Positions 3,159 to 53,673 of a DNA stretch of 64,000 nucleotides are shown one piece after another; position 1 is the stretch's first letter; every line of letters starts with the position of its first letter. The translations under genes were made by a program, and so were the position numbers. The notes below the pieces were generated by a model. It ran no database searches and was not told where the DNA came from. It saw only the letters and a list, made by a program, of their open reading frames with translations. The stretch covers positions 10,194,001 to 10,258,000 of the forward strand of contig OZ038466.1 of NCBI GenBank assembly GCA_964036295.1, in the 5' to 3' direction. The DNA comes from Plumapathes pennacea. Taxonomy: Eukaryota; Cnidaria; Anthozoa; Antipatharia; Myriopathidae.

Positions 3159-6100
3159 ATGAATTCACTCCGTAAGCCTTGGATTTGCGTCGGTGTAGCG
3201 TACTTCGTATTCATTGGACATCTGCTACAACTGACAGGTAAAACTTCACTATTTGTCCGTTTTGTTTAATGGGTGAAATACGGTTTACTTCCTACTGACT
3301 GTACTGGTGCGTATCACTGACTTTTGTAATACGCTTTGCGGAAGAATATTAGTGTTAGGCAAAAGATATCAGCGTCGCCGTTGAAAGCTCTAAAAGCTAG
3401 ACTATACTGGCTCAGTAGGTCAACAGTACGACCGGGAGCCATTATATGTTTTGCCAGAGAAACCGTTAAAGTTTGATGCAGTTACCTTTTTCGGTTCCGT
3501 TTGCTTCATTGTTTTTGACTAAGACTATATGCCGCCGCCCACAGCCGTGGATTTATTTTATACATGGTTCATTACAACGGGACAAATACATAAGTTTTAT
3601 GTTAATGAGGACTAAGGGGTTTTAGCTATAGTAAATATATTTCGATTTATATATATATATATACATCATTACGTCATGTTGTATAGCTATTTGTGCAAAT
3701 TCAGCACATTGCGTACATTCGTCGGGCGTCAATGCCAAATCGGTATCGGAAGGATAAGAATGTGATGCCGTCAGCCACTCTGCAAAGTATATTCGTCTCT
3801 ATTAGCTTGTGAATGGCGACAACAAACGATGTGATGAAAACAAAAAAACATTTTTGACTGCTTTCCTTGATGTAAATGGGAAATCCTCCCCTGATAGGTA
3901 CTTTTGAGTAAAATATTCACTTTTCCTCTTTTAATTTGAAAAATCTAGTCCTTGTATGGTATGGCATGTGATCAGTCGTGCCATTACGCACGTTACAGGG
4001 AATATTCAGTAGTCAGACGTTAAAGAGATAAACGAAACGCGGCCTTTAAATAATTCATTACTATGAGTATTAGTCAAGGCTAAGAATTCCTTGTTGCTCG
4101 ACGCGTGAGGCCGGAAGTGATATTGGAGGGGTAGTCTAACTTCCCTTCACTGGGTATTTGCTTATCCATCGTTTTTAGGGGATGCCTTCAATAATACGAG
4201 CCTCAAAAATTCTTGTCTGTTCTTCGCTTATTAATCGCTTACAAACCACACGGAGCACGGATACTTTGATTAGAAACTCGTTCATTGACACATTGGAGTC
4301 GGTGCCTGTGGCACGACGTCACCAGCCAATTTCCGCTTATTCTCCGAATCGTCGGAAATGACACCTCCTGCATCCACGATGATCATGAAGGCTCGGTCTT
4401 AGAGAGATAATCCTTTCATTCAGACGTCAAAAAGCCCACCCAGAGTTTGTGAAAGCAATGTGAAGGAAGCAAAACTGGAAACAGGAAGCCAATCCCTTTT
4501 AAAACTCTATGTCGTTAATACTGCAACTTCGAATATGTCATTTATTTTGCTGTAACTCCTATAGTTTCTTCTTTGGATAAACACGCACTCGTAACGCGAC
4601 TAGATATTTAATATCTACAGGGGAAATGACCGCTACTCTGTGAATTAGTATTTATTTTCTATGTAAACCATATTTGAGTGAAGTAGGTTTTTCTTTCCGT
4701 ATTTTACGAACTGGTCTGGATGATAGATAACATACAATTTATAATGGTTAGTCTACGGATGCTTTTGTAATTAGACAAGAACAAACAACAAAACCTTAAC
4801 ACAATATTTTTCACCTTTCTGCTTTCATGACAGAGAGCGTCACCTGGAAGCATCTTCCATCGGATCCAACTAAAGCGATCACAGGATCTACCGCCTCCTT
4901 AGATTTCGGCTATGAATTGGAAAAGAATGAGGACTTTACCTACGGCGAGTTCAGTAGAATCACAGGCGGCACCAGCATTGATATTGGTGATATTAATGCA
5001 GATGGTGTGACCACCTTAAGGACTAGGATAGCTAAGAAAATGAGCCTGACAGCGACAAACAACTCAGCAGTACTCAGCATTCATGAAATCAAGATACCAG
5101 ACCAAGCAAAGTATTGCTACAAAATAGTCACATCACAGAAAAGGGAAGAAAAGTGCATCCACTTAAAAGTTCTTGGTAAGATAAATTCTATAATTTGTTG
5201 TTAGGATCATATGTAAATATTTAAAAAGTGACACAAACGTGTATGTGTGTGCATCATTATGCCGGTCTCACATAAACCTGTTCAATTATTTTGTTTCTGT
5301 TTTATAAATGAATTTAGTACCACCAAAACTAGATGTATCCCCTTTGGACAAGACAGTCAACGAGGCAGAAAGTCTAGACCTCTTCTGTAATGCAACTGGG
5401 ATTCCTGCTCCAAACATCAGCTGGACCAAAGTAGGGAATGACAAGCAGCTCAGCCAGAAAGAGCATTTGGTGATTGATTCAGCACGCAAGGACGATTCTG
5501 GGATTTATGTGTGCAGAGCGTCTAGTGAAGCGGGCAACGTCACAGCCAAGGCTTTGGTGGAAGTCCAGTGTAAGTAACAGGAAACAATGTTATGCACAAA
5601 ATGAACCGAATGTGGTAATCACAATTTAACAATTTCAGTCAAACACTGACTTCTCCTCGCTCATCCAGTAGTACTAACCAACTTTTATTTGCCATATCAC
5701 TGGAGCAAATTTCCAACACAATTTAATATTGGATCACAGTTCGTCAGCCGGCTCTGCACATGTTGCTCATTTTCGACAAAGACGCGAACCCAAAACTTTG
5801 GACCAACATTTAACAGCATTACAATTAGTCTAATCAACTAATCTAAGCAGGTCAATCACTAAAAAGTAATGTTCCCTTTTAGGTTTTTAGAATTTAATAA
5901 GGTATAGTGTATACGTATAACTCGAATCGACCAAGGGTCGATATGTGAAACCTAGACGCCGTGAAAGAATTAGAAGCTGATAGAGCCGTTTTCGGATGAC
6001 TGTCGAAAACCAAAACAAAAGTAATCACACAGGCCAATCACAGAGACTGAGAGAAAACAGTTCAGCCAATTGGAAGCCAAAGTAATTTGCGTTTGTTCTT

Positions 6101-6454
6101 GCGTTTGGTTTTACTTTCCAATCAGAAGTGCGAGTACACGCCATCGCTTGCGTGAGAAGTGTTTGCTTTTGGTTTTGTTCCTGATTGGCTGAGCATGCTG
6201 ACAAACTCGTGTGGACCAATCCGAAAGCGAAGCAAACGCAAAACCAAAGCAATCACACAATTACTTTCGACAGTCATCCGAAAACCGCTCTATAATGCCA
6301 TATATGAGTGCGTTCATCGTAGTGTCCACCTTATTACATTGCAGCTCCGACGACATCCAAAGGAAGTTCAGGGAGAAAGATCTCAAACTGGCTAATTACT
6401 GCTGGCCCCATTCTTGGTGGGATTGTTTTCCTTCTGATTGTTGGAGACTTTTGA
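3159..6454 (+). CDS. Gene B: short two-Ig surface protein with GPI-like tail
   Basis: Four exons (3159-3237, 4834-5175, 5318-5569, 6345-6454) join in frame to 260 residues plus TGA at 6452-6454. Residues 1-26 (start MNSLRKPW) are a signal peptide. Residues 27-140 form an unusual V-like Ig domain with PDQAKYC on its F strand and no B-strand Cys. Residues 141-224 are a canonical I-set domain with LFCNATG, SWTKVG and DDSGIYVC. The last exon starts SPTTSKGSSGRK, continues into a roughly 20-residue hydrophobic run and stops at GDF, with no basic cytoplasmic anchor. This pattern (small omega-site residues, spacer, terminal hydrophobic tail) suggests a GPI signal. The paralogous exon in gene G instead continues into a basic tail with an ITIM-like end. 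A 312-bp MITE sits in the last intron. A truncated TM protein is the alternative reading. Confidence 0.82.
5981..6292. mobile_element. MITE copy 1 (312 bp, TA-flanked terminal inverted repeats)
   Basis: The ends are inverted repeats of about 27 bp, GAGCCGTTTTCGGATGACTG on the left and its complement CAGTCATCCGAAAACCGCTC on the right, flanked by TA. The element is non-coding. The interior carries TTTTGG-type repeats. It lies in the last intron of gene B. Further copies are at 31373-31696 (gene E) and 45437-46444 (gene F, interrupted). Confidence 0.8.
6345..6454 (+). CDS. Gene B terminal exon (GPI-signal-like or truncated TM)
   Basis: The acceptor is TTGCAG at 6339-6344. The exon is homologous to gene G exon 52651-52820 through the hydrophobic segment (LGGIV/LGGIA, LLIVG). 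After GLIVG-type residues it reads GAC TTT TGA, where G reads GCT ATT GCC and goes on. The protein therefore ends inside or at the edge of the membrane segment. Gene F has the identical ending, so the change predates the B/F duplication. Confidence 0.75.

Positions 6455-8201: not shown

Positions 8202-8246
<45 letters not shown>
8163..8246 (+). mobile_element. Minimal LINE 3' tail with poly-A and TSD
   Basis: About 40 bp match the 3' terminus of the LINE at 46885-48165 (ATATTGTTTAAATAAA shared) and run into a long poly-A. They are flanked by the 14-bp direct repeat AAAAGCTTGTTGGC at 8149-8162 and 8247-8260. This is an extremely 5'-truncated retrotransposon insertion. The paralog is at 49475-49559. 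Confidence 0.7.
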
Positions 8247-8253
<7 letters not shown>

Positions 8254-8821
8254 TGTTGGCGAAGAGGATCAAGGTAAGACCTTTGTTAATCTTGGATTAT
8301 CTTTATCTGTAGCCCATCCAGAGCTGAGGAGAAAGTCAAAGCAATGTGCTATGTACCTTATTATAAGAAATTAACGCTCCATAAAAATTGACGAAATTTT
8401 TTGTGAGGGTTAACTAATTAAGTGGAGCGTTATTTTCCGCGACCTCAAATTTCCCAACATCTGAATCCTGTCCAGACATATTTGACACCTAAGGAAACAA
8501 TAGCTTTCTCTTTTGTGTACACTGTATTTCGATCTTTTACTTCGTTTACAGAAGAACAGTTCTCAACGTGTCAATCCCGTTAATTTCCTTCATTTTGACA
8601 TTTAACCTCCATTTTCATGTTAACTTCTTTTATTCAGAAGTAATTTTCCCACCAATTCGGTAATTTTCTATAATGCAGTATATCTGAAGAGAGATAGGAC
8701 TTAATAAAAGACACTCAGATGCAAAACATTAGAAATGTGTCGTTTTATCAACCACACCGTGAGCACAATTTAAATAATTTTTTAGCACGAGTTGATTTAT
8801 CAAGTGTCCCAACTTTTTATG

Positions 8822-9725
8822 CTGGGCCTAAGGGCCCAGCATATAATTGTTTTCACCCAAAAACCACAGCGTAGGTATCACGACAATTGGTCAAAGAGTC
8901 CCCCCTCTAGGATTTTGAATTTTGATTGACGTGTAAGCAAAAATACTATATTTTGATTGGATAATGTTCACGTGCAAGCGGCGTGGAAGCCTTTCTTTTC
9001 TTGGCTGAGTTTCAAAGTATGTAACGTGAGATTTTTGTTGACGTATACTTGCGCTCTTGCGGTTTTTGTTCATTATATTCAATTTCGCATTTTTCTTCGT
9101 CCAGCTGGTTAAAACTAAGCGAAGGAAAGCAAACATAATCAAACGATACCATTTCGACAAGCTGAAGTGGCTCCCGACTGGGTTTTTCAGCTTTAACATA
9201 AGCTTATCAAACAACCGTGAATTCATCAAAACCGCGGTGATAATAGCTCAGAATGAAACAGGCCGACTGGAAATTTAGAAAGCTTCGTAGAAGAAAGGCA
9301 ATTTAGAAGACGAAAAACAGGTATGTAATGAAGCGCAGGCTAGATTAATCGTGGCCTGCGATTAGAAACAAATGTTCGAAGTCAAACTGTCAAAACAATT
9401 ATGCATGAAAATGAGATATGTCACGCAATTACTCCCAAACTCAAAATGTAGATTCTCTCATCCTTTTGAAGCAAATGTACGAGTGTTCTAATTATAACTT
9501 ATAGTTTAATCAGGTTCATTTGTGTAAATCAAAAGCCAAGTTCCCCATACTGTATAATATTTTTTTCGGGTGAGAAATTGAAAGAGAAAATTGAAGTTGA
9601 TCACTCTTGGGAGTCTCGCTCTAGTCCAAAGATTGCTTATTCAACAATTCATATGGTGCGTGCGGACACTTGCCACACCAAACTTGAATCCCAGCATCTG
9701 TCGCGTTTTCACGCGACAAAACTTG
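8822..9725. mobile_element. About 900-bp insertion with hairpins at both ends
   Basis: The duplicate at 50128-50131 reads straight from AACTTTTTT into ATGATCACAATC, whereas here about 900 bp intervene between two TTTATG-like strings. The left end carries a perfect 11-bp-stem hairpin (TATGCTGGGCC, loop TAAG) at 8819-8844. The right end carries TGTCGCG-TTTTCA-CGCGACA at 9699-9718. No credible gene lies inside. It is either an unclassified element inserted here or a block deleted from the other copy. Confidence 0.5.
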
Positions 9726-9764
9726 TTTATGATCACAATCACTTCAAACTTTCGCAAGCCATTG

Positions 9765-9807
<43 letters not shown>

Positions 9808-9828
9808 ATAATAATAATAATAATAAAC
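9765..9828. repeat. Poly-A / (TAA)n tract
   Basis: About 41 A are followed by seven or so TAA units. The paralogous site at 50168-50202 is much shorter, so the tract is length-variable. Confidence 0.9.
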
Positions 9829-12351
9829 TGCAGGAACAAATCTATCGACCCCCAAAGAAACCAAAACACTTTTTTGACAATAATTTTATCCCAAACATAC
9901 TACGTACGTCATATAATCTGAAATTTCCCGAAATAATCACAATGTGACGAGTATCACAGGAAACAAAAATTTTATTTGTAATGTTTTGTTTTCTGGCGAT
10001 GCCATATTGATGGGTTTTTTTTTTATAATAGAGTAACCGCTACAGCAATCCCACAGGCGACCCAAGCTTTGAGGAAATCATACGTGTATAGACGATCGTG
10101 AATGATCAAAGGGTAACCTCCCTTGCACTGCGAGCCCCTGAAATCGGAGGCCCCAAAGTACTGTATCGGACAAGCGCAGTAATCATCAATGAAAAGCATA
10201 TGATTCCGAACAGTAAGAAATCGAAGCACACATCGAAACTCCGCTTTCAAGATTTCGCTTTAAGTCCTTCAAGACCACATCAGTCAGAATTTAAATCAGA
10301 CAGTTTCTCAAATTGGCTGATTTTCCTAAACGTCGCTGTTTCGCCACGCGCGAAACATTTGTTGCGAATACAAAATTTGTGTCCGCAATGAGTGCGACAA
10401 CGTTGCAGCACGTTTTGCCACGCAGGAAACATCGAAGGACACAATGTTGCCGCCATAATGTGTATTCGTTTTGCCCGGTCATAAGTGATAGTTCATAATA
10501 GATAAATGATATATAATGATGTAAGAATTTACTCAGGTTCTTGAGCATCAGCGAACTACGCATGAAGAAAGGAAGAGATGGGAAGACGTTTTCTGGAGTT
10601 ATTTTGATTGTTATCATTGTATTCCTGAATTGCGAGTAGATCTGTTGCACTTCAGAACCATTATCACAGAGGTTTTGGTAAATTCTCGGTTGTTTGACAA
10701 GCGTAAGTCAAAGTTGAAAGACCCGTGACCACCGACAGCCCTGATCGCGATCGAGCGACTTCAGCTTGTCGAAACATTTCTATCGTTTGATTATATTTGC
10801 TTTGCTTCGCATAGTTTTCGCCAGCAATGAAAAATGCTGTAGAGAACTGAGAGAAGAAGAATGCAAAAAGTATAGAAACCTAGAAAATTGACCATTTTAA
10901 ACTACCAACTTCTCGGTAAAGTGTTAAAAAATATTAATAGTGCGACCACTCAAATCAAGGCTGTCGGTTGCATTTAACAGCTGTGCTCGCGTTAAAGAGG
11001 GAATGAGCTACCAATACACAGGGTTCGTGTTTAGTTCCAAACCACCGACATGCGTTTCCTGGAAACTGTGATGTGCGACATTTTGCTGTTATCAAACAAT
11101 CCTATTTCTACGAAATTTGTAGCGTGGTGTCTGACTCGATTTACAAAAGTTACTTCAGATAGCCTGTACTTTATTATTGCGTTAGGTGAATTATTTATCT
11201 GAGAAATATATAACGCGTTTCCATGTAATATAGTCTCATCTAAACGCGAAGGAATTTGGGAGCACACGAGAGTAGCGTAGGGAAACCACGGGGCCGCGGA
11301 ATGGTTTCTCTAGGTACTCGAATGTTCTTCCATCTTTCCAAGTGTTTAGATGGGGCTATATTACATGGGAACACCTTATATATTTCTTTTATTAAAAAAA
11401 AGTCAATAACATGCATCACGTATTACGTCAGCGTGTATACTCTCATCTAAAATGGTTATTTATTCAATTAGGACGCGCGTAGTATCATAGTCATTATATA
11501 AATATAACAAGACAGGGACGTGGCCAGTGCGCTTGTGACGTCATTAGTACAATGAATAGAGACAAGCGTGGTACCGGGAGAGGAACTTTTGTCGTGCGTT
11601 TATATGCAAAAGATATTATAGTCGAGTCAGTTTTTGCACATGACGGATCCAAGAGCTCCCTTTATTTTTCTTGTCCTCTTTTCTTCTAATTTCGGTCAAA
11701 CAGATATTCACGAAAAAGTGTATTATAATAATTAAGAGAAAACAATTATCGAAGACCCCGTAGGAATATTCTTCGTTTGCAACAACCCAGTTTTCATAGC
11801 TCCCGACTCATGCCGGGTATGATGTTTCATACGGAATAATATTTCAATGAGTGATTTGCTTTTGCCTTGAGTGATCGTTTTTGCCGGGAGCATTTTGAAC
11901 TTGCTTTCCGATGCACGTGACAGTACTTGTGTGACGCTTGCTATACAACCGGCAACCTTGTTGAGTGAATTTTTAAGCTGACATGTTTTGTGGAGGAACT
12001 GTGTTGTCATTTTGTAATGGGATTGACTGGGGAATACCCGACATCTTAAGTAGCTGTAAGACAGCGTAATAGCCTTATCTCATCTTCCCAGCGTGTGCAT
12101 CATGTTCAAGTAGCTGTAATTGAAAGCTTTTAGACTTATCTCTATAGCACATTAAAACATGACACTTCCCATGATGAAATTACTTCGTATGAAAAAGCCA
12201 TCTCAGACGTTACGCATCCTACATGTACAAGTCTTATCACTAATATGTTCAAGACTGCTATGCATTAAGCTTTAACGCAAAATTCTGGGTCGATACGAAA
12301 TTAATCTCTATCGGAAGCTGCAGACGTTTGAATACCGTGACAGCAAAGGCA

Positions 12352-15891: not shown

Positions 15892-26597
<10,706 letters not shown>

Positions 26598-29352: not shown

Positions 29353-32300
29353 GTAACCTCTACATTTCATCTTTTTGTTTTGTTTCCTTGTCGCCATATC
29401 ACACAGTACAAACTTAACATATGATGCATCCCTTTTTATGAGGCGCTTTGAAGACTGTTAAGCTAATGTTAGCCGACGAACACAAAAACGATTATACTAT
29501 CACTTGAGCTATACAGGTACTACTTCAACCAGCACGTAAAGTTCCGTGTCTGCAGACAGGCCATAGTTCTTTTTCTCTAAAATCAAACTTGTTTTGAGCA
29601 AACGCTTTTTGCCTGTGTTCTTCCAACACGACGCACACTGGCATTCTCTTTGCGTAATAAGATTACAAGAATTACGATCGGATAATTAGGCATTAAACAG
29701 ATAAACAAAACTTACTTTAGCTAGGAATATGCATTTTACTTATAGCAACATAACAGTTGGCATTAGTCAACAGGATTGAACTAGAGTTTGGGTCGGTGCG
29801 CGACTGAGAGTAGTCTCAACTAGATAAAACGATTCAACTCTGCCACAGAATTACTAATCGGGTACAGTGGTGGACAGAAGATTTGGGCGTTGTAAAAAAA
29901 ACTTTGACGTGGACAAGAGGTTGCCTCTACTTTAAGAACATTAAAACAAATTCAAGAGCTGGTCAGAGTAATGGTTCAGTCCGTAACAATCATATAACAA
30001 CACAAGACTTGATAAAGATATCACACAAAACGAAAGTTGTCTGTTTGATCAAAACCGCCACGTAGAAAGACGGAAGTATTTAATTGGTTGTCATATCTTT
30101 CCGCGTGCTAGAACGACGGAGCTTTTGATGTGTTAATTTGGAGGAGGTGCACTTAGATAGATAGCAATCAATACCTGATCCAATTTACGTGCAATATTTG
30201 TCTTATACAAAGAAACCAAAACTCCTAACTAGTCGCAAATAGTAACTACTTGCTCTTTTATAATCTAGATAAAGGTTCGGATTCATCATTACTACATTAT
30301 TTCTAAACCATTTGACCACCAATTTGATCACTGCATGTAAAACGCATTGGCACGCACAGTGAATAACCCCTTAACTACTGAGTAATGTCAACTTCAATAC
30401 AGTCTTACACCAGATGAAAGCTGATTGCACTACCAATCCTCACTATATCACTCATACATTTCCCTCTTGAATATATAGTTGGGAAAACTTGTATTATTTG
30501 ACAGCTCATGGAGTGAGCTTTGAGTTTTTTCTGGAATAGGAATACTCAAGTGGTCTCACAAGAGTTGTTTATTTTGGCCAGTTCATTCCTGAATGTTTTG
30601 AATGCGTCATTCCCCCTTCCTGATCAGCCATCAAACGAAATAAGCCACTTTCACAATCATGCACACTTGGAAATATATCTTTTTACTCCCCATGTAAACG
30701 TGTCCGCCAAGCAAATCTCTCTGCTAAGCTTGGTTTTGTGCCTATACAATGGCATTTTAAAGAATTCTCAGAATAAGAAAATTCTCAGAACTCAGAATAA
30801 GTTATACACTCTGCCCGCCAGAAAATCTGCGCTTAGCGAACTGCGGATGATTTTGAAAGTGGTTTAGTCCTATTCCTAGTCCGGTCAATCTCGTTTCCAG
30901 GGCTTTTTCCCTTCCAAACTTCGCTGGGGTAACTATGGTGAGACGCTGCTTTGATTTACTACTGAGTTCTATTTTATTCACAGGAAGCTTCACCTGGACG
31001 GAACTTCCATCGAATCCCACCAAAGCGATTACAGCATCTACCGCCTCCTTAACATGGAGCTATGAAAAGGAGGAATACGAGACCTTGACTTTTATTGAGT
31101 TTAGGAGGGTAAAAGATGGCAGCAGCACAGATATTGGATACATAGGCTCAAATGGTGCGATCACCGTGCTTCTTGGAAACATGAACCTAACAGCAAGAAA
31201 TAATTCCGCAGTACTCAACATACACGGAACCAAGAGAGAAGACCAAGCAACGTACTGCTGCAAAATGAAGACATCAAAAGGAAAAGAAGAGAAGTGCAGC
31301 TACTTAACAGTTCTTGGTAAGATCAACGCACTTAAACTTGATGGTCTCTAAAAACAAAACTTATTATAGCAATAGAGCCGTTTTCGGATGACTGTCGAAA
31401 ACCAAAACCAAAGTAATCACACAGGCCAATCACAGATACTGAGAGAAAACAGTTCAGCCAATTGGAAGCCAAAGTAATTTGCGTTTGGTCTTGCGTTTGG
31501 TTTTACTTTCCAATCAGCAGTGCAAGTACACGCTATCGCTTGCGTGAGAAGTGTTTGGTTTTGGTTTTGGTTTTGGTTTTGTTCCTGATTGGCTGAGCAT
31601 GCTGACAAACTCGTGTGGACCAATCCGAAAGCGAAGCAAACGCAAAACCAAAGCAATCACACAATTACTTTCGACAGTCATCCGAAAACCGCTCTATACT
31701 ATGCCCCCTTCCTGAATCTGTCATACACCATTGGTTTCTTAAATCGTTTGTTTTTTCGTTCATTACAGTGCGACCAAAACTGAATGTCTTCCCCATGGAT
31801 CAGACAGTCAATGAGACAGAAAGTCTAGATCTCTTCTGCAATGCTACTGGGATTCCCGCTCCGAACATCAGCTGGACCAAAGTGGGGATTAACAAGCAGC
31901 TCAGTCAGAAACAATATTTGGTCATTGATCCAGTACGCAAGGAGGATTCTGGGATTTATATGTGCAAAGCGTCCAGCGAAGCAGGCAACGTCACAGCCAA
32001 AGTTTTTGTGAATGTTCAATGTAAGAGAAATGTATATACAACAGGAACAAGTTTTCCTAATATACCACTCAAACTAGCCGGCTTTAGTGGTCTGATTCCT
32101 CCTCTCGTTCATCCGTTCCTCATTCTGTTTATCCGTATCAGTTCATTGCTTCTTAACACGAAATAAACATATTACGCGGCGACTTGTTGTCCATTAAGGA
32201 GATTGGTATACACTTCTATTTAAAAGTAATGTTGCTTCTGTTTTAAACAAGCAGATAAACCAAGGAACACCAATTTGCTTAGCAGTGCTGTTATGGACAC

Positions 32301-39296: not shown

Positions 39297-40818
39297 AGTT
39301 AACTTCATAATCAGCGATAGTGCTTAGTGTAATAGCACAAAAGAACCCTTGAGATTAGGATTAGGTTTAGGGTTGGGGTCAGGACATTTTGTGCTACTAT
39401 ACAAAGTCGTTGTCGGCCAAAATGCCCACTTGCCCAGATGCCTGCCCTGGGAATTCTAACCCAGGCTAAAATGCACCCTATGTTCTAAAATGCCCCCTCT
39501 GCTCTAATATCTCCCTTCTACAAATGCATTGTTTTCTCAGCTGTAAAGCAACTGAATTCATATTAAGAAAGACGTGTAAACTGTGTCTAAACTGAATAAG
39601 TATTGAGTTTTTTCTGGGATAGCCCAATTCAGAAAATAAATTTAAAGGCATCAAGACACCTGGGCCCGGTTGCAAAAAAACCTTAAAAGCATAAAACGCT
39701 GGCGGCTGGGACTGGGCGTTTTTTGGTTGTTGTTAAGATAACAATGGAAATTCAATTATTCCTATTTTATTTTAGACGCGTCACATAAGATACCCAATAA
39801 GACAAAAGCGGAAGAATTGCTAACACCACTTGAGAAGCAAAACCTGGACTAATACGCGCTGCACTTAACCAGAAATAAATTCAACCTTTGGGTTTGTGAC
39901 AGTACATGTGACAGAAATAACGTCTACTGTATAATTTACTAATGACAGAGGGACAGACGTTCCCTGTTGTGCAATATCTTCCTTCTCAATAGCACCTCTT
40001 TAAACGAACTTTCTGTTAAAATTTCGTGTTTGTGCATGAGTATCCTGGCTTGGTCAGAGCTATATTTGACCGTATAAATATCACTTTCTTAAACGTCGGG
40101 CATTTAGACCACTTTGTAATGTCCGGCCGGGCATTCTGCGGCCAAGGCTAAAATGCCCGTGGGGGAGAAATAAAAACAAAAACAAAATAATAAGCGAGTC
40201 CATGTGTGTTCAGCCTTTTAACAACGTTATGTTGTTATGTTTGTGAAACGTTCTTTCCCTGACAAACCTAGATGAAAGAAATGAGCTCAAAATTTCAGCA
40301 ATCCAATAAGCGTTTTCATAGAAATCGGAAGTGAGATTTGGATTTGGTGATATGACTCTAAATCTTGTTGGCTTTCGAATGAAGGCCAATATCACAAACA
40401 CAACTACGCAGACGAAACATTTGTGTATGGCTTGACCGTTTAACGCTACTTTGGTCGTATGGCTCTGAAAATTGGCCCACTTTTTATACCTGAGTTTTCT
40501 CTTTCCACGGTTGTGTACAGTTTATTTACCACAGTACTTAGAAATGTACAAGAAATTTTCGTTGTATTTCGCTGCAAAGCGTGACATGCTGGCGTCAGCA
40601 TCGTCTGGACTCTTAAGATCACCACGGTAAATCTTCCAATCAGAGAGCGAGAAACTAATGAGTTGTGGTAAAAACTATATTTGTTGCGGAAGTCGAAAGT
40701 CACCTGATAGGGTTTTCCCCTATTCGACTGACTTTCTCGGTAAGCCACGGGAGATAAAAGACCGACAAATCCCCACCACAGAATCAAATGCGGGTGGTCG
40801 ACTAGATAACAGAGCGTA
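39297..40818 (+). other. Gene E 3' flank / first F upstream region
   Basis: Homologous to 1662-3158, with no coding exon. From 39709 it is part of a roughly 1.9-kb tandem duplication. Confidence 0.5.
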
Positions 40819-40900
40819 ATGAATTCACTCCGTAAGCCTTGGATTTGCGTGATCGGTGTAGCGTGCTTCGTATTCAGTGGACATCTGCTACAACTGGCAG
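40819..40900 (+). CDS. Gene F alternative upstream signal exon
   Basis: An 82-nt exon (MNSLRKPWICVIG...) is the same as the exon at 42775-42856 and has the same donor GCAG|GTAAAAC. It may act as an alternative first exon with its own duplicated upstream region, or be unused. Confidence 0.6.
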
Positions 40901-42616
40901 GTAAAACTTCACTATTTATACGTTTTGTTTAATGGGTGAAATACGGTTTACTTCCTACTGACTGTACTGATGCGTATCACTGACTTTTGTAATGCGCTTT
41001 GCGGAAGAATATTAGTGTTAAGCAAAAGATATCAGCGTCGCCGTTGAAAGCTCTAAAAGCTAGACTATACTGGCTCAGTAGGTCAACAGTACGACCGGGA
41101 GCCATTATATGTTTTGCCAGAGAAACCGTTAAAGTTTGATGCAGTTACCTTTTTCGGTTCCGTTTGCTACATCGACATGTTTTTGACTAAGACTATATGC
41201 TGCCGCCCACAGCCGTGGATTTATTTTATACATGGTTCATTACAACAGGACAAATACATAAGTTTTATGTTAATGAGGACTGAGGGGCTTTTAGCTATAG
41301 TAAATATATTTCGATTTATATATATATACATCATTACGTCATGTTGGGGAAGGGTAGTCTAACTTCCCTTCACTGGGTATTTACTTATCCATCGTTTTTA
41401 GGGGATGTCTTCAATAATACGAGCCTCGAAAATTCTTGTCTGTTCTTCGCTAGGAGATTATTAATCGCTTACAAACCACACGGAGCACGGATACTTTGAT
41501 TAGAAACTCGTTCATTGACACATTGGAGTCGGTGCCTGTGGCACGACGTCACCAGCCAATTTCCGCTTATTCTCCGAATCGTCGGAAATGACACCTCCGG
41601 CTGGGACTGGGCGTTTTTTGGTTGTTGTTAAGATAACAATGGAAATTCAACTATTCCTATTTTATTTTAGACGCGTCACATAAGATATCCAATAAGACAA
41701 AAGCGGAAGAATTGCTAACACCACTTGAGAAGCAAAACCTGGACTAATACGCGCTGCACTTAACCAGAAATAAATTCAACCTTTGGGTTTGTGACAGTTC
41801 ATGTGACAGAAATAACGTCTACTGTATAATTTACTAATGACAGAGGGACAGACGTTCCCTGTTGTGCAATATCTGCCTTCTCAACAGCACCTCTTTAAAC
41901 GAACTTTCTGTTAAAATTTCGTGTTTGTGCATGAGTATCCTGGCTTGGTCAGAGCTATATTCGACCGTATAAATATCACTTTCTTAAACGTCGGGCATTT
42001 AGACCACTTTGTAATGTCCGGCCGGGCATTCTGCGGCCAAGGCTAAAATGCCCGTGGGGGAGAAATAAAACAAAAACAAAATAATATGCGAGTCCATGTG
42101 TGTTCAGCCTTTTAACAACGTTATGTTGTTATGTTTGTGAAACGTTCTTCCCCTGACAAACCTAGATGAAAGAAATGAGCTCAAAATTTCAGCAATCCAA
42201 TAAGCGTTTTCATAGAAATCGGAAGTGAGATTTGGATTTGGTGATATGACTCTAAATCTTGTTGGCTTTCGAATGAAGGCCAATATCACAAACACAACTA
42301 CGTAGACGAAACATTTGTGTATGGCTTGACCGTTTAACGCTACTTTGGTCGTATGGCTCTGAAAATTGGCCCACTTTTTATACCTGAGTTTTCTCTTTCC
42401 ACGGTTGTTTACAGTTTATTTACCACAGTACTTAGAAATGTACAAGAAATTTTCGTTGTATTTCGCTGCAAAGCGTGACATGCTGGCGTCAGCATCGTCT
42501 GGACTCTTAAGATCACCACGGTAAATCTTCCAATCAGAGAGCGAGAAACTAATAAGTTGTGGTAAAAATTATATTTGTTGCGGAAGTCGAAAGTCACCTG
42601 ATACCGACTGTTGCGG

Positions 42617-42696
42617 AAGTCTTTCTGGGTCTTTTTCTGGGTCTCTTTCTGGGTCTTTCTGGGAAGTCTTTCTGAAGTCTGTCAGAACTTTCTGGG
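42617..42696. repeat. TTTCTGGGTC-type minisatellite
   Basis: Irregular copies of CTTTCTGGGTC and GAAGTCTTTCTG lie about 80 bp upstream of gene F's second start. The block is absent from the first unit and from gene B's upstream region. Confidence 0.8.
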
Positions 42697-42774
42697 TAAG
42701 CCACGGGAGATAAAAGACCGACAAATCCCCACCACAGAATCAAATGCGGGTGGTCGACTAGATAACAGAGCGTA

Positions 42775-45700
42775 ATGAATTCACTCCGTAAGCCTTGGAT
42801 TTGCGTGATCGGTGTAGCGTGCTTCGTATTCAGTGGACATCTGCTACAACTGGCAGGTAAAACTTCACTATTTATACGTTTTGTTTAATGGGTGAAATAC
42901 GGTTTACTTCCTACTGACTGTACTGATGCGTATCACTGACTTTTGTAATGCGCTTTGCGGAAGAATATTAGTGTTAAGCAAAAGATATCAGCGTCGCCGT
43001 TGAAAGCTCTAAAAGCTAGACTATACTGGCTCAGTAGGTCAACAGTACGACCGGGAGCCATTATATGTTTTGCCAGAGAAACCGTTAAAGTTTGATGCAG
43101 TTACCTTTTTCGGTTCCGTTTGCTACATCGACATGTTTTTGACTAAGACTATATGCCGCCGCCCACAGCCGTGGATTTATTTTATACATGGTTCATTACA
43201 ACAGGACAAATACATAAGTTTTATGTTAATGAGGACTGAGGGGCTTTTAGCTATAGTAAATATATTTCGATTTATATATATATATACATCATTACGTCAT
43301 GTTGTATAGCTATTTGTGAAAATTCAGCACATTGCGTACATTCGTCGGGCGTCAATGCCAACTCGGTATCGGAAGGATAAGAATGTGATGCAGTCAGCCA
43401 CTCTGCAAAGTATATTCGTCTCTACTAGCTTGTGAGTGGCGACAACGAACGATGTGATGGAAAAAAAAAAACATTTTTGACTGCTTTCCTTGATGTAAAT
43501 GGGAAATTCTCCCCTGATAGGTACTTTTGAGTAAAATATTCACTTTTCCTCTTTTAATTTGAAAAATCTAGTCCTTGTATGGTATGGCATGTGATCAGTC
43601 GTGCCATTACGCACGTTACAGGGAATATTCAGTAGTCAGACGTTAAAGAGATAAACGAAATAATTCATTACTATGAGTATTAGTCAAGGCTAAGAATTCC
43701 TTGTTGCTCGACGCGTGAAGCCGGAAGTGATATTCAAAACCGTAGGGGGAGGGGTAGTCTAACTTCCCTTCACTGGGTATTTGCTTATCCATCGTTTTTA
43801 GGGGATGTCTTCAATAATACGAACCTCAAAAATTCTTGTCTGTTCTTCGCTAGGAGATTATTAATCGCTTACAAACCACACGGAGCACGGATACTTTGAT
43901 TAGAAACTCGTTCATTGACACATTGGAGTCGGTGCCTGTGGCGCGACGTCACCAGCCAATTTCCGCTTATTCTCCGAACTGTCGGAAATGACACCTCCTG
44001 CATCCACGATGATCATGAAGGCTCGGTCTTAGACAGATAATCCTTTCATTCAGACGTCAAAAAGCCCACCCAGAGTTTGTGAAAGCAATGTGAAGGAAGC
44101 AAAACTGGAAACAGGAAGCCAATCCCTTTTAAAACTCCATGTCGTTAATACTGCAACTTCGAATATGTCATTTATTTTGCTGTAACTCCTATAGTTTCTT
44201 CCTTGGATAAACACGCACTCGTAACGCGACTAGATATTTGATATCTACAGGGGAAATGACCGCTACTCTGTGAATCAGTATTTATTTTCTATTTAAACCA
44301 TATTTGAGTGAAGTAGGTTTTTCTTTCCGTATTTTACGAACTGGTCTGGATGATAGATAACATACAATTTATAATGGTTAGTTTACGGATGCTTTTGTAA
44401 TTAGACAAGAACAAACAACAAAACCTCAATACAAAATTTTTCACCTTTTTGCTTTCATGGCAGAGAGCGTCACCTGGAAGCATCTTCCATCGGATCCAAC
44501 TAAAGCGATCACAGGATCTACCGCCTCCTTAGCTTTCGGCTATGAATTGGAAAAGAATGAGGACTTTACCTACGGCGAGTTCAGGAGAATCACAGGCGGC
44601 ACCAGCAGTGATATTGGTGATATTAATGCAGATGGTGTGATCACCGTAGTGACTAGGATAGCTAAAAAAATGAGCCTGACAGCGACAAACAACTCGGCAC
44701 TACTCAGCATTCGTGGAATCGAGATACCAGACCAAGCAGAGTATTGCTGCAAAATAGTCACATCACAGGAAAGGGAAGAAAAGTGCATCCACTTAAAAGT
44801 TCTTGGTAAGATAAATTCTATAATTTGTTGTTAAGATCATATTTAAATATTTAAAAAGTGACACAAACGTGTATGTGTGTGCATCATTATGCTGGTCTCA
44901 CATACACCTGTTCAATTATTTTGTTTCTGTTTTATAAATGAATTTAGTACCACCAAAACTAGATGTATCCCCTTTGGACAAGACAGTCAACGAGACAGAA
45001 AGTCTAGATCTCTTCTGCAACGCTACTGGGATTCCCGCTCCGGACATCAGCTGGACCAAAGTGGGGAGTGACAAGCAGCTCAGTCAGAAAGAGCATTTGG
45101 TGATTAATTCAGCACGCAAGGAGGATTCTGGGATTTATGTGTGCAGAGCGTCCAGTGAAGCGGGCAACGTCACGGCCAAGGCTTTGGTGAAAGTCCAGTG
45201 TAAGTAACAGGAAACAATGTCATGCACAAAATGAACCGAATGTGGTGATCACAATTTAACAATTTCAGTCAAACACTGACTTCTCCTCGCTCATCCAGTA
45301 GTACTAACCAACTTTTATTTGCCATATCACTGGAGCAAATTTCCAACACAATTTAATATTGGATCACAGTTCGTCAGCCGGCTCTGCACATGTTGCTCAT
45401 GTGAAACCTAGACGCCGTAAAGAAATTAGAAGCTGATAGAGCCGTTTTCGGATGACTGTCGAAAACCAAAACCAAAGTAATCACACAGGCCAATCACAGA
45501 GACTGAGAGAAAACAGTTCAGCCAATTGGAGAGCGTCCACTGAAGCGGGCAACGTCACAACCAAAGTTTTTGTGAATGTCCAGTGTAAGTCATAATAATG
45601 TATAACAGCTGGGACAGATTGTTTTCAATGTGCACTTTCAACAATGATACCCAAGCTAAACTGGCTGTGGTGGTCTGATTTGCGCTATTTTTCGTTCATT

Positions 45701-46606
45701 TGCTCATTCTTTCTGAATTGCTTAGAAAAGAAAACATTTAGAGAATTGTTTCCGAAGTCCAAATTTCTTACTTAATAGTGACTGCAACCGGTCTTTACTT
45801 GGCAAAATCAAATCAAGTTTTCTTACGCCTTTCTGTGTTTTACCTTAAACGAGCAGATAAACCAAGGAACACCACCTTGCGCAGCAATGCTGTCATGAAT
45901 ACCGTCACTACAGATGGATCCGTAACATTCAACTGCAGCACAGATGCCAAACCACCTGCACACGTGTTCAGCCTTTACCATGAAGGATCGATAATTGCGC
46001 GAAATGCGTCATTCACGATTGAAAGAGTAGCGTGGTCTGATCAAGGAAAGTACACCTGTGTTCCTTCTAACATTCTTGGTGCAGGAAAAAATGCTTCCAT
46101 CGCTCTCACTCTTTCGGGTAAGGTTTTGTAAAATGCATTCGAAGTAAATACTGAAAATAAACGTAATAGAGCTGGAGCTAAATTTTCCTTTTTATCTTAA
46201 GTTCAGCCAATTGGAAGCCAAAGTAATTTGCGTTTGTTCTTGCGTTTGGTTTTACTTTCCAATTAGCAGTGCGAGTACACGCCATCGCTTGCATGAGAAG
46301 TGTTTGGTTTTGGTTTTGGTTTTGTCCCTGATTGGCTGAGCATGCTGACAAACTCGACCCGTGTGGACCATTCCGAAAGCGAAGCAAACGCAAAACCAAA
46401 GCAATCACACAATTACTTTCGACAGTCATCCGAAAACCGCTCTATAATGCCATATATGAGTGCGTTCATCGTAGTGTCCACCTTATTACATTGCAGCTCC
46501 GACGACATCCAAAGGAAGTTCAGGGAGAAAGATCTCAAACTGGCTAATTACTGCTGGCCCCATTCTTGGTGGGATTGTTTTCCTTCTGATTGTTGGAGAC
46601 TTTTGA
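42775..46606 (+). CDS. Gene F: B-like protein with a gained third Ig domain
   Basis: Exons are signal 42775-42856 (or 40819-40900), V 44464-44805, I-set 44948-45199, C2-like 45857-46117 and GPI-like/TM 46497-46606. They join to 1047 nt (348 aa plus TGA 46604-46606). Without the C2 exon it is 261 aa, matching gene B. The C2 exon lies inside a 670-bp insertion within the MITE of the last intron. It is in sense orientation with proper splice sites and phase 1, so it can be read in frame. The V exon has the CC F-strand motif (AEYCCKI) that B lost. The C-terminus (SKGSSGRK spacer, hydrophobic, GDF stop) suggests a GPI anchor. Whether the extra exon is spliced in is unknown. Confidence 0.78.
45531..46200 (+). 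repeat. Inserted genomic fragment copied from a G-like gene
   Basis: It matches 51676-52344 of gene G almost base for base: the last 54 bp of an I-set exon, the whole intron, the whole C2-like exon and 83 bp of the next intron. It is flanked by the 15-bp direct repeat GTTCAGCCAATTGGA (45516-45530 and 46201-46215), which is single in MITE copy 1. Confidence 0.9.
45857..46117 (+). CDS. Gene F acquired C2-like Ig exon
   Basis: It encodes YKPRNTTLRS..., SVTFNCSTDA and DQGKYTC, with acceptor GAGCAG and donor GTAAGG. It differs from gene G's exon 52001-52261 by only a few residues (RSNAVMN for SSAVMD, AKPP for ANPP). It is open and phase-1 symmetric. Confidence 0.8.
46497..46606 (+). CDS. Gene F terminal exon (GPI-signal-like)
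   Basis: Same as gene B 6345-6454: PTTSKGSSGRK, about 20 hydrophobic residues, then stop. No cytoplasmic residues follow the hydrophobic run. Confidence 0.75.
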
Positions 46607-48179: not shown

Positions 48180-48685
48180 ATTTCGGAAATACACAAGAAT
48201 AACGCAAAAATTAGTCCGGTGACCTCCCCTGACTTTTGGTTATAGGTCTCTACATGTAAGATCTGCAATTTGTGAAAAAAAAGAAAAAAAATCCGTGGAG
48301 CAGTTCTTTCGGAATTTTGGGTAAAGCTGGTGCCCCCCCCCCCCCCCGCTTCACGCTACTTTGGTCCTTTAATTCTGAAAATTGGCCCGCTTTCTCGTTT
48401 CGGTTGGCTCTTTCCACTGGTGGGTCTTATTGTTCTGTTTGGCCAAGTTTTAGAAAATCTGTTTGATATCCGTGATGCTGGTCGTGATGCTAGCCAAAGT
48501 CTTGAAAACGTCACCCAATATAAGGGTCTTGTTTACTTAATAATCGCGTGAGCCCAAAGTCGTAAGTCCAAAGTCCAAAACAGAAAATAAAATCCCATCA
48601 CAGAATCGAATGCGTCAAAATCGCAAAAGAAGCAAGTGCGGCAGACACACTTGACGTTTGATAATCGACTGGATACAGCAGTGTA
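48180..48685 (+). other. Gene G upstream region
   Basis: Homologous to 6747-7380. A poly-C run lies near 48333-48347. The block before the start (GATAATCGACTGGATACAGC) is conserved with gene C. Confidence 0.5.
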
Positions 48686-49510
48686 ATGAATTCACCTCGT
48701 AATCTTTGGATCTGTGTCTATGTGGCGTGCTTCTTGTTTAGTGGATATCTGCAGTTGGCAGGTAAACTTCAAAACATCTTTGTCCGCATTGTTTAATGGG
48801 TGAAATACGTTGTGTAGGTGTACACTAGAATATTAGTGTTAAACGAAAAATCATCACTAACTATTAACGTAACCGTTGAAAGCTCGCGCCACTCAGGTAT
48901 AATTTATACAGTCCCTCCCACCAGTATAAATCGCAACAACCAAAGCATGAAAGCTACCGTTGTCATTCGTCTTCAAGCCGAAATATTTTTTACACCAAAT
49001 TTTTCAGAAAGAAAGAAGTCTTGGCATGATTATTTCTATACCTGTTCTGTTTAGCAAAGAGAGCTGGTTGATGTCATGCTGACGTGGCGCTCACATGGGA
49101 GTTGCGGTTTAAAGATCATACTTCATTACATTCATTAAAGATTTAAGATACTTCATTAAAGATCATACATTTTCCCTTCAGTCACTGTACTTTTACTAGA
49201 TCGATATATTTTCGGCCTCGTATATGTTTATCCGATTCGAGCATGTAAGTTTGGTTAAGGTCCAAACTTTGATCTTTGAGCTTGTGCAATCAGCACTACG
49301 TTCGTATACCGCACACGTCCTTCAATCGGATATTGAATACTGCAAAAACTATTTGTCTTTCGTGGCGACAACAAACAAACAAACAACACACTGAGATACA
49401 GTGGGTATTTATACAATTCGATCAGAACTTGATAGCTTGCATTTCAGTTGGTCTTTGAACAAAAGCTTGTTGGCAGCTCTTGGAGTTAATGTAAAGTTCC
49501 AAATATTGTT

Positions 49511-49566
<56 letters not shown>

Positions 49567-52500
49567 TGTTGGCGAGGAGGATCAAGGTAAGACCTTTGTT
49601 AATCTTGGATTATCTTTATCTGTAGCCCATCCAGAGCTGAGGAGAAAGTCAAAGCAATGTGCTATGTACCTTATTATAAGAAATTAACGCTCCATAAAAA
49701 TTGACGAAATTTTTTGTGAGGGTTAACTAATTAAGTGGAGCGTTATTTTCCGCGACCTCAAATTTCCCAACATCTGAATCCTGTCCAGACATATTTGACA
49801 CCTAAGGAAACAATAGCTTTCTCTTTTGTGTACACTGTATTTCGATCTTTTGCATCGTTTACAGAAGAACAGTTCTCAACGTGTCAATCCCGTTAATTTC
49901 CTTCATTTTGACATTTAACCTCCATTTTCATGTTAACTTCTTTTATTCAGAAGTAATTTTCCCACCAATTCGGTAATTTTCTATAATGCAGTATATCTGA
50001 AGAGAGACAGGACTTAATAAAAGACACTCAGATGCAAAGCATTAGAAATGTGTCGTTTTATCAACCACACCGTGAGCACAATTTCCATAATTTTTTAGCA
50101 CGAGTTGATTTATCAAGTGTCCCAACTTTTTTATGATCACAATCACTTCAAACTTTCGCAAGCCATTGAAAAAAAATAAATAAATAATAATAATAATAAT
50201 AAACTGCAGGAACAAATCTGATCGACCCCCAAAGAAACCAAAACACTTTTTTGACAATAATTTTATCCCAAACATACTCCGTACGTCATATAATCTGAAA
50301 TTTCCCGAAATAATCACAACGTGACGAGTATCACAGGAAACAGAAATTGTATTTGTAATGTTTGGTTTTCTGGCGATGCCATATTGATAGTTTTTTTTTT
50401 ATATAATAGAGTAACCGCTACAGCAATCCCACAGGCGACCCAAGCTTTGAGGAAATCATACGTGTATAGACGATCGTGAATGATCAAGGGGTAACCTCCC
50501 TTGCACTGCGAGCCGCTGAAATCGGAGGCCCCAAAGTACTGTATCGGACAAGCGCAGTAATCATCAATGAAAAGCATATGATTCCGAACAGTAAGAAATC
50601 GAAGCACACATCGAAACTCCGCTTCCGAGATTTCGCTTTAAGTCCTTCAAGACCACATCAGTCAGATTTTAAATCCGACAGTTTCTCAAATTGCCTGATT
50701 TTCCTAAACGTCGCTGTTTCGCCACGGTCGAAACATTTGTTGTGAATACAAAATTTGTGTCCGCAATGAGTGCGACAACGTTGCAGCACGTTTTGCCACG
50801 CAGGAAACATCGAAGGACACAATGTTGCCGCCACAATGTGTATTCGTTTTGCCCGGTCATAAGTGATAGTTCATAATAGATAAATGATATGTAATGATGT
50901 AAGAATTTACTCAGGTTCTTGTATCTTAGAATGAAAATATTTTTTACCTTTTCCTTTCCATCACAGAGAGCTTCACCTGGACGCATCTTCCATCGGATCC
51001 TACCAAAGTGATCACAGGATCTACCGCCTCCTTAATGTGGGTCTATAAATTGGACAAAAATGAGAAATTTACTTACATCGAATTTAGGAGAAAAGTGGGG
51101 TCCACCCCGACAGACATTGCAATCATAAACGCGAACGGAGTGCCCACCGTAACCGCTAACAACATGAACCTGACAGCGACAAACAACTCGGCAATACTCA
51201 GCATTCATGGAATCAAGAGCTCAGACCAGGCAAGATATTGCGGGGAAATGGTCACATCACAGGATAGGGAAGAAAAGTGCATCTACTTGAAAGTTCTTGG
51301 TAAGATTCTATTGAGTGCACAAAAGTATGTATATTTCTGTGCATTATGTACTGTAAGTATAAATACATGTAATGTGCATGTATGTATGCATGTACTCTGT
51401 GTATGTCTGTGTGCATCCTCTCCTTACATGAATCTGTTCAATTGTTTTGTTTCCCTTTGTATTATGGATAAATTAAGTGCCACCAATACTAGACGTCTAC
51501 AGCACGAACAAGACAGTCAACGAGACAGAAAGTACAGATCTCTTCTGCAATGCTACTGGGATTCCTGCTCCGAACATCAGCTGGACCAAAGTGGGGAGTG
51601 ACAAGCAGTTCAGTCAGAAAGAGCATTTGGTCGTTCATTCAGTACACAAGGAGGATTCTGGGATTTACATGTGCAGAGCGTCCAGTGAAGCGGGCAACGT
51701 CACAACCAAAGTTTTTGTGAATGTCCAGTGTAAGTCATAATAATGTATAACAGCTGGGACAGATTGTTTTCAATGTGCACTTTCAACAATGATACCCAAG
51801 CTAAACTGGCTGTAGTGGTCTGATTTGCGCTATTTTTCGTTCATTTGCTCATTCTTTCTGAATTGCTTAGAAAAGAAAACAGTTAGAGAATTGTTTCCGA
51901 AGTCCAAATTTCTTACTCAATAGTGACTGCAACCGGTCTTTACTTGGCAAAATCAAATCAACTTTTCTTACGCCTTTCTGTGTTTACCTTAAACGAGCAG
52001 ATAAACCAAGGAACACCACCTTGCTCAGCAGTGCTGTCATGGATACCGTCACTACAGATGGATCCGTAACATTCAACTGCAGCACAGATGCCAACCCACC
52101 TGCACACGTGTTCAGCCTTTACCATGAAGGATCGATAATTGCGCGAAATGCGTCATTCACGATTGAAAGAGTAGCGTGGTCTGATCAAGGAAAGTACACC
52201 TGTGTTCCTTCTAATATTCTTGGTGCAGGAAAAAATGCTTCCATCGCTCTCACTCTTTCGGGTAAGGTTTTGTAAAATGCATTCGAAGTAAACACTGAAA
52301 ATAAACGTAATAGAGCTGGAGCTAAATTTTCCTTTTTATCTTAAACGCTCTCTAATGCTTTACTTTGTCGGAAAAGGTTGGAGTGGCCCAGTGAACAATT
52401 ACACCACTAATCACATTATGCAGATCATTAGCGAACGGTTTACTTATGTTGATCCACGCTTCATCACAATTTCATTTGTTTTACTCTAAAGCTCTCAGTC

Positions 52501-52820: not shown

Positions 52821-53673
52821 CAGTTAGATTGGTTTCTTCTTTCTTTCTTACAATCCTGGTCAAAAATGTTGGGACACAAGGACAAAGTCCTCTAATTTTT
52901 TAGTTTTTCGCACAACCCCCTCCCCCACTTCAATGTTGAATTGCGCATCTTCCAGCCCTGAACCAACACTATTGATCGGGGGGAGGGGAGAGCGGGTGCC
53001 TTTTTGACTAACTAGGCCAGCCAAAGTGGGTGATATCAAGAAAATAGCACTATGATCAGTGTGTCCCAAAGACTTTTGTCCCGGATTGTAGGTGAAGTGC
53101 CCATGCCAGGTACAAATTGTACTTCTCTCTTAAAAACACCGGGTAACTTTGGAAAACAATTTGGGCATCATTGGTAGACCTCTAGTAAAACTCATATAGT
53201 ACAATCTCTTAAGCATAAAAAAAATGAAGGAATAACTAATGAGTATCATCACGTTTCAACAAAAAGTGGTACCAATGTTTGTTTTTTTGTTTTTTTTTTT
53301 TTTTACTCCCTAAATCGCATTCAGGTGAAACGCCTGCATCATCTGGTCGACGTGACGTGGTAAGGCCTAAATTTTTCTGTAATTCAACCTTGTCATATTT
53401 TCTTGATGCATGCATTTACCTTTTCCCACTTTCGACTATTTTCGAGTGTTCTACACGTTGTTCATATTCTCAACAAGTACCCTTCTGCCTAGTGTGTTCA
53501 GCCTATTGCCGAATTTGTTAGGTTAGTTTAGTGTGAACGTGGCATCTTGAAGATCAAGGTGTAAATGGACCGTCGGTCATGACGGTCGTCTGTAAAAACT
53601 ACGTTTTACTTTATGGTCCTATACTGAATAGTGGTTAGGCTTGTTTTAGTGCAAGGCAAACGTTTGTCGCTCA

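What the first reader, a model, noticed from the sequence alone, without database searches (positions are those of the whole stretch)
45531..46200. Exon gain caught in the act: 670-bp gene fragment inserted with a 15-bp target duplication
A piece of a G-like gene (end of one Ig exon, intron, complete C2-like exon, start of the next intron; source 51676-52344) sits inside a MITE in gene F's last intron. It is flanked by GTTCAGCCAATTGGA on both sides, and the uninterrupted site survives in gene B at 6060-6074. It is in sense orientation and in phase, so F could express a third Ig domain that B lacks. The intron is retained, so this is not a copied spliced mRNA, and it has no poly-A.
Basis: seen in the sequence. 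Interest (0 to 1): 0.88.

Follow-up and report, generated by a model that had tools for sequence, protein, structure and literature searches.

The report
Neighbour's exon pasted into an intron
A 669-base piece of one immunoglobulin-type gene, carrying a whole spare exon, was recently copied into an intron of a neighbouring gene, most likely as a patch over a broken chromosome; it is a clean, datable example of how animal genes can pick up a domain, but nothing yet shows that the spare exon is used.

Summary
G is the best match in the 290-Mb genome (98.2%; next 86%). Gene B and two B-type copies outside the window carry the same MITE at the same place, uninterrupted, so F gained the piece. F-G divergence (11/669) is below B-F divergence (50/1401; p = 0.017): the event is younger than the gene duplication. 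The exon is complete, phase 1-1, open, with G's splice sites. It restores an Ig domain that D, E, G and H have and B and its two relatives lack; it is not a new domain type. Eight changes fall on F's side; the four in the exon are all replacements (a fifth, silent, is ambiguous), while the family shows dN/dS 0.20-0.45. Chance alone leaves such an exon intact 86% of the time. So the exon is usable, but constraint is not shown. Kept intron, no A-tail, donor 6 kb away and no copy found outside the cluster favour DNA-level patching of a staggered break (my estimate 0.6) over retrotransposition (0.2). A known kind of event, unusually clean. No RNA, population or organism data were available.

The parts
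45531..46199 (+). captured fragment of gene G (45531-46200 if the ambiguous A is given to the insert)
   Evidence: 98.2% identical to 51676-52344 end to end
45515..45530 (+). left copy of the 16-bp direct repeat AGTTCAGCCAATTGGA
   Evidence: 1-nt junction ambiguity
46200..46215 (+). right copy of the 16-bp direct repeat
45531..45584 (+). 3' part of G's first C2 exon, with an intact donor but no acceptor (decoy)
   Evidence: donor score 7.01; no AG at 45440-45585 has more than 8 of 17 pyrimidines before it
45857..46117 (+). complete C2' Ig exon, 261 bp, phase 1-1, open
   Evidence: Pfam Ig_2 on the joined protein at residues 204-281
45436..46446 (+). MITE (315 bp in B) interrupted by the insert; 29-bp terminal inverted repeats
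   Evidence: 8 of 9 copies shown have TA at both ends, L004 is cut at its right end
42775..42856 (+). gene F exon 1, signal-peptide-like
   Evidence: open through the splice
44464..44805 (+). gene F V-type exon
44948..45199 (+). gene F first C2 exon
46497..46606 (+). gene F last exon, hydrophobic tail and stop
51676..52344 (+). donor segment in gene G
   Evidence: best match in the genome
52001..52261 (+). donor C2' exon in G
6060..6074 (+). empty (uninterrupted) target site in gene B
5980..6294 (+). uninterrupted MITE in the last intron of B
31372..31698 (+). independent uninterrupted MITE copy in gene E, different intron

Best explanation
Shown: after F had separated from B, a 669-bp piece of neighbouring gene G was copied into a MITE in F's last intron, doubling 15-16 bp of the MITE. 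Inferred: a chromosome break or two offset nicks with 15-16-nt overhangs arose inside the MITE; one end was extended by copying G, 6 kb away, or a G-derived piece was joined in; the overhangs were filled, which doubled the target bases, and the ends were joined with 0-1 nt of homology. The result is a splice-competent C2' exon in sense that could turn F from a two-Ig into a three-Ig protein, the layout of G. Its early changes look near neutral, so it is at present a usable but unproven exon.
For: Insertion and direction. Younger than the F/B split: 11/669 against 50/1401, p = 0.017. DNA-level source: intron kept and contiguous with both exon parts, no A-run at the 3' junction. Locality: donor 6 kb away in the same orientation; 0 of 39 matches to the insert lie outside the cluster; a 1951-bp G query finds outside it only a 51-60-bp dispersed repeat at its end (40 of 142 first-look candidates scored). 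A random landing within 6.2 kb of the donor has p of about 4e-5 (biased, because donor and target had to share the window to be noticed). Not a normal property of the MITE. Near-blunt junctions with 1 nt shared at each end.
Against: Human break-patch insertions (class 2) lack target duplications, while those with them (class 1) are read as LINE-made (PMC5110952, abstract and passages). Daphnia staggered-break repeats are 4-12 bp (PMC4202315, passages), shorter than 15-16. An AATAAA ends 38 nt before the insert end, which a retrotransposition reading could use. No other paralogue gap shows such a duplication: of 12 pairs compared, only this event has an ambiguity above 5; in the five close pairs with gaps of 20 bp or more it makes 2 of 30 rows. 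The one other interruption seen at this bond is a LINE insertion.
Confidence: 0.6

Rival explanations
1. LINE-type retrotransposition: unspliced, possibly prematurely ended G RNA was reverse-transcribed at a nick in the MITE by LINE enzymes; the 15-16-bp repeat is an ordinary LINE target duplication.
For: Duplication length lies in the range recalled for LINEs; an AATAAA ends 38 nt before the insert's end; the genome has a young LINE with a microsatellite (ATTC) tail rather than poly-A (the top 22 of 40 listed matches to its tail end are 98-100% identical; endonuclease-reverse transcriptase domain), and one copy sits at the very same bond of another MITE copy.
Against: Intron kept, no A-tail and no microsatellite tail at the right junction. 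Donor 6 kb away and no G copies found elsewhere, whereas RNA-mediated copies are expected to land anywhere. That LINE copy made no target duplication and lies in the other orientation. Only one exact junction of this LINE tail with the site exists in the genome.
Confidence: 0.2
2. Replication fork template switching (FoSTeS/MMBIR): the polymerase jumped from the MITE to G, copied 669 bp and jumped back 15-16 bp upstream of where it had left.
For: Same orientation, donor 6 kb away, 1-nt homology at both joints; the array has other local duplications such as 39703-41346 against 41598-43304.
Against: A clean short back-jump with nothing else rearranged is not typical of it (recalled). It leaves the same scar as break patching, so sequence alone cannot separate them.
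Confidence: 0.15
3. The fragment is ancestral and was lost from B by exact recombination between the repeats.
For: Direct repeats can mediate exact loss.
Against: Three of three F-type paralogues found other than F (B, L046, L047) have a single site, as do unrelated MITE copies; F-G divergence is below B-F divergence, p = 0.017.
Confidence: 0.02
4. Assembly artefact.
For: Tandem arrays are hard to assemble; no raw reads were available.
Against: F and G copies differ at 12 positions, eight of them on F's side against outgroups, and the joint carries a clean duplicated site.
Confidence: 0.03
5. On the separate question of use: the exon is spliced in and the third domain is under selection (exon gain in the full sense).
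For: Open frame, symmetric phase, donor score 9.29 and acceptor tract as in G; it re-creates the V-C2-C2' layout of G. If the ambiguous silent site 46071 is put on F's side the count is 4 replacement to 1 silent, with likelihood 0.10-0.26 at dN/dS 0.3-0.5 against 0.37-0.40 under neutrality.
Against: By the nearest outgroups, four of four exon changes on F's side are replacements, against family dN/dS 0.20-0.45; likelihood 0.27-0.32 under neutrality and 0.035-0.05 at dN/dS 0.3. Eight random changes leave the exon intact 86% of the time, so intactness proves nothing.
Confidence: 0.3

Closest known systems
Templated sequence insertion polymorphisms, classes 1 and 2 (human; PMC5110952, abstract and passages seen)
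   Same: A sequence templated from elsewhere in the genome is inserted; class 2 is read as a break patch; class 1 has a target duplication of at least 5 bp.
   Different: This event has the duplication of class 1 without A-tail or TTTT/A site, and the tail-less junction of class 2 with a duplication; it fits neither class. Donor is 6 kb away, not distant.
Staggered-break intron gains in Daphnia (PMC4202315, passages seen)
   Same: Insertion flanked by direct repeats, explained by repair of a staggered break.
   Different: Those repeats are 4-12 bp and the inserts become introns; here the repeat is 15-16 bp and the insert carries an exon of known donor.
Patch-mediated break repair with tandem duplications in rice (Vaughn and Bennetzen 2014; only its reference entry seen; not held)
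   Same: Insertion explained as a patch with duplicated target bases (title; details recalled).
   Different: Plant, mostly short tandem duplications (recalled); no exon capture that I know of.
Filler DNA gene movement at transposon-linked breaks in grasses (PMC3445842, passages seen)
   Same: Gene-bearing fragment used as filler during break repair linked to a transposon.
   Different: There the break accompanies transposon insertion; here the MITE was already in place, as it is shared by F, B, L046 and L047.
Domain gain by insertion of exons into introns (PMC2926785, abstract and passages seen)
   Same: Middle exon of symmetric phase gained in an ancestral intron.
   Different: That survey attributes less than 10% of high-confidence gains to this route; here donor, empty site and joints are still readable.

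Membership tests
Break-patch templated insertion (staggered ends) | Copy of genomic DNA with intron, donor intact | tested here: met
Break-patch templated insertion (staggered ends) | Direct repeat of target bases at both ends, single in the empty site | tested here: met
Break-patch templated insertion (staggered ends) | Joints with 0 to a few nt of homology, no tail | tested here: met
   1 nt at each joint
Break-patch templated insertion (staggered ends) | A physical staggered break in the germ line | not testable with these tools
   inference only
Class 1 TSIP / LINE-mediated insertion | Target duplication of at least 5 bp | tested here: met
   16 bp; criterion from PMC5110952
Class 1 TSIP / LINE-mediated insertion | Untemplated A-tail 10-30 nt after a polyadenylation signal | tested here: not met
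   AATAAA ends 38 nt before the insert end, no A-run
Class 1 TSIP / LINE-mediated insertion | TTTT/A first-strand site | tested here: not met
   bottom strand at the left edge reads GAACT/GTTTTC (from the sequence); this is the human L1 site, and other LINEs differ
Class 2 TSIP | No target duplication | tested here: not met
Transposon-captured fragment (Pack-MITE style) | Same MITE with the fragment found at several places | tested here: not met
   fragment matched only in the Ig cluster; among the loci compared only F's copy lies inside a MITE
Processed retrocopy | Intron removed | tested here: not met
   intron 45585-45856 retained
Exon gain by exon shuffling | Exon symmetric, in sense, splice-competent | tested here: met
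   (splice signals by sequence only)
Exon gain by exon shuffling | Exon present in mature RNA | not testable with these tools
   no transcripts held
Exon gain by exon shuffling | Purifying selection on the new exon | tested here: inconclusive
   4 replacement, 0 silent changes (or 1, if 46071 is F's); leans neutral

The most novel reading that the evidence does not exclude
Young MITEs in introns of a tandem immune-type gene array act as landing pads: their hairpin breaks at a preferred bond (TTGGA|A, hit in F and, independently, by a LINE insertion in another MITE copy), and the gaps are patched from the next gene, so that whole Ig exons are exchanged between neighbours as DNA, with introns, without recombination between the genes.
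Probability: 0.08. Interest if true: 0.85.

Novelty: new member of a known kind. Interest (0 to 1): 0.5.

Why it matters
Exon shuffling is usually inferred from ancient genes whose joints have decayed. Here donor, empty site, joints and the polarity of most later mutations are still readable, so the molecular route (DNA patch rather than RNA) and the early selective fate (near neutral) can both be estimated. It gives a concrete test case for whether intronic exon capture comes from break repair, and a ready presence/absence marker for how long a captured exon waits before being used or lost. It also shows that a domain missing from one gene type in a tandem Ig array can be restored from a neighbour.

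Tried and rejected
Rejected: MITE carries the fragment (no second MITE-borne copy among the loci fetched). Repeat is native to the MITE. Loss in B. Processed retrocopy. Cut-and-paste transposon (15-16 bp exceeds the duplications I recall for such transposons; one search lists no inverted repeat of 15 bp or more at the insert ends).

Led nowhere: protein search for the three-domain F product gave 2 hits of 2352 candidates, neither of them that product, and no transcript evidence. Fold of the MITE strand is strongly hairpin-like (z = -5.83) but the duplicated bases do not sit at a clear stem edge. Structure model of the inserted domain on five exons was poor (mean pLDDT 62.2, pTM 0.50), with several strands; no fold search was made. 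Other paralogue gaps gave no second case (the diverged pairs D-H, E-H and G against L011 and L012 align poorly and their gaps mean little; a 1.96-kb local duplication in F scores an ambiguity of 1 only because its copies are not identical). Organism not identified.

Dropped or partial: of 658 sites the list shows 100, of which I analysed the 88 on C1. For the 14 of these without AGCCAAAG after the site I read the DNA: L005 is interrupted at the bond by a LINE, L057 has an extra stretch within about 40 bp, L062 is a diverged or rearranged copy, and the other 11 continue as MITE, with small changes. In one search I gave 17 of the 21 C2'-bearing loci L011-L031 (L027, L029, L030, L031 left out); only L011 and L012 cover intron and exon. 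Sites 45838 and 46071 were assigned to G from these two; all 15 more distant copies share G's base at 46071, so that silent change may be F's. 46149 rests on L011 alone. dN/dS used 8 copies against G. The K at 45951 also occurs in gene E. In one search the L049 strand was reversed by my script; corrected. In one search my exon ends for the C2' exons of D, E and H, and the C2 starts of D and E, were a few bases off, so those splice scores were ignored.

Full report
What is there. The window lies in a 290-Mb, 24-contig genome (C5:10194001-10258000), animal by its intron-bearing Ig-type genes, whose organism I could not identify. It holds part of a tandem array of such genes; matches to the insert span C5:10.10-10.38 Mb. 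Gene F (42775-46606) has a signal-peptide-like exon, a V-type exon, one C2 exon and a last exon with a hydrophobic tail. Its last intron holds a MITE with 29-bp terminal inverted repeats, 315 bp long in B; 8 of 9 copies shown have TA at both ends. The MITE is interrupted after its 95th base by a 669-bp piece identical in layout to 51676-52344 of gene G: the end of the first C2 exon, the whole next intron, the whole C2' exon and the first 82-83 bases of the following intron. Sixteen bases, AGTTCAGCCAATTGGA, stand on both sides. One base at each joint is shared by donor and target, so the duplication is 15 or 16 bp.

Is it an insertion, and when. B and two more F-type copies (L046, L047) have the same MITE in the same intron with a single site. 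The MITE is common: its 15-mer occurs 658 times in the genome, 632 of them preceded by AACA and 552 followed by AGCCAAAG. None of the 88 listed sites on C1 has a same-strand neighbour within 10 kb. F therefore gained the piece. F's copy and G differ by 11 substitutions and one 1-bp indel. Against outgroup copies L011 and L012, and 15 more distant copies that cover little more than the exon, eight changes fall on F's side and four on G's. One of the four, the silent exon site 46071, is uncertain: L011 and L012 share F's base, the 15 others share G's. F-G divergence of 11/669 is lower than B-F divergence of 50/1401 in the V-C2 block (Fisher p = 0.017), so the event followed the separation of F and B. 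Later gene conversion could also lower the first figure; I have no test for that.

How it probably happened. The retained intron and missing A-tail rule out a spliced retrocopy. Human templated insertions come as class 1, with target duplication, A-tail and a TTTT/A site, read as made by LINE enzymes, and class 2, without these, read as break patches (PMC5110952, abstract and passages). This event has the duplication without the tail, so it fits neither. Direct repeats at Daphnia neointrons are explained by staggered breaks, with repeats of 4-12 bp (PMC4202315, passages). Filling of 3' overhangs before end joining makes small tandem duplications at induced breaks (PMC8355091, abstract and passages). 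The donor is 6 kb away in the same orientation; 0 of 39 matches to the insert lie outside the cluster, and a 1951-bp G query finds outside it only a 51-60-bp dispersed repeat at its end (40 of 142 first-look candidates were scored). A random landing within 6.2 kb of the donor has p of about 4e-5, with the caveat that the finding was noticed only because both lie in one window. I therefore favour copying of neighbouring DNA into a staggered break (0.6), then LINE action on unspliced RNA (0.2) or replication template switching (0.15); the last leaves the same scar.

A result that pulls the other way. In MITE copy L005 (C1:2843656) a young LINE with an ATTC tail sits, in the opposite orientation, at the same bond, TTGGA|A, within one base and without a target duplication. 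The element carries an endonuclease-reverse transcriptase domain (Pfam Exo_endo_phos_2, E 8e-10) and a GDSL-type lipase domain; the latter recalls CR1-like LINEs (recalled, not tested). Its tail-end 385 bases match 40 scored places of 87 candidates, the top 22 at 98-100%. So LINE enzymes have cut here at least once. Only one exact junction of this tail with the site exists in the genome, and I saw L005 only because it keeps the 15-mer, so I read this as a hint, not as evidence.

Does it make a third Ig domain. The C2' exon is 261 bp, phase 1-1, open in the frame that joins the C2 exon and the tail. The partial exon upstream has a donor but no good acceptor. Pfam's Ig_2 matches the joined protein over this part. 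D, E, G and H have this exon after the first C2, while B, L046 and L047 match a G query over V-C2 and the tail exon but not in between, and the intron of L046 and L047 is collinear with B's over its whole 771 bp: F has regained the family layout rather than invented one. Use is not shown. The four clear exon changes on F's side are all replacements; in eight comparisons of G with family members dN/dS is 0.20-0.45; four of four replacements has likelihood 0.27-0.32 under neutrality and 0.035-0.05 at dN/dS 0.3, and eight random changes would leave the exon intact 86% of the time. If 46071 is F's, the count is four to one and the contrast shrinks to 0.37-0.40 against 0.10-0.13. One of the replacements, K at 45951, also occurs in gene E, so it is tolerated.

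Literature. Of seven searches run, the six on break filling, templated insertion, intron gain, patch-mediated duplication, exon shuffling and exon gain listed no paper whose title or shown abstract start describes a recent exon capture with a target duplication of this kind; that is a statement about those listings only, in an open-licence library. The seventh, on cnidarian Ig clusters, was a guess at the organism and named nothing usable. A survey of animal domain gains puts insertion of exons into introns at less than 10% of high-confidence gains (PMC2926785, abstract and passages).

Verdict. A real, recent, well-polarised capture of a neighbour's exon; a new member of a known kind of event, valuable because it is young and complete. 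'Exon gain' should read 'exon candidate' until RNA is seen.

Noticed in passing
39703-41346 and 41598-43304: The 5' end of F, with its signal-peptide-like exon (40819-40899 and 42775-42855, identical), is locally duplicated in two blocks at 98.7 and 99.4%; F may have two alternative first exons.
   Followed up: partly
5769-5942 in B; F near 45399-45400: A 174-bp stretch present in B and L046 (and, by its flank matches, in L047) is missing from F with 2 bp of ambiguity, so F carries a private deletion about 115 bp from its private insertion.
   Followed up: partly
7038-10543 and 48347-50921: The region downstream of B is 97-98% like the region upstream of G in two blocks, including a signal-peptide-like exon at 7381, but no V exon follows before 15894: B may once have had a G-like neighbour, now truncated.
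   Followed up: no
L005:1501-1560, C1:2843656: Young ATTC-tailed LINE inserted in another MITE copy at the same bond as the F insert, without target duplication; it has an endonuclease-reverse transcriptase domain and a GDSL-type lipase domain.
   Followed up: partly
20389-22143 and 23133-24885: Inverted pair, 1755 bp, 99.7% identical.
   Followed up: no
52849-52900: 51-bp dispersed repeat just after gene G, found at 93-100% on several other contigs.
   Followed up: no
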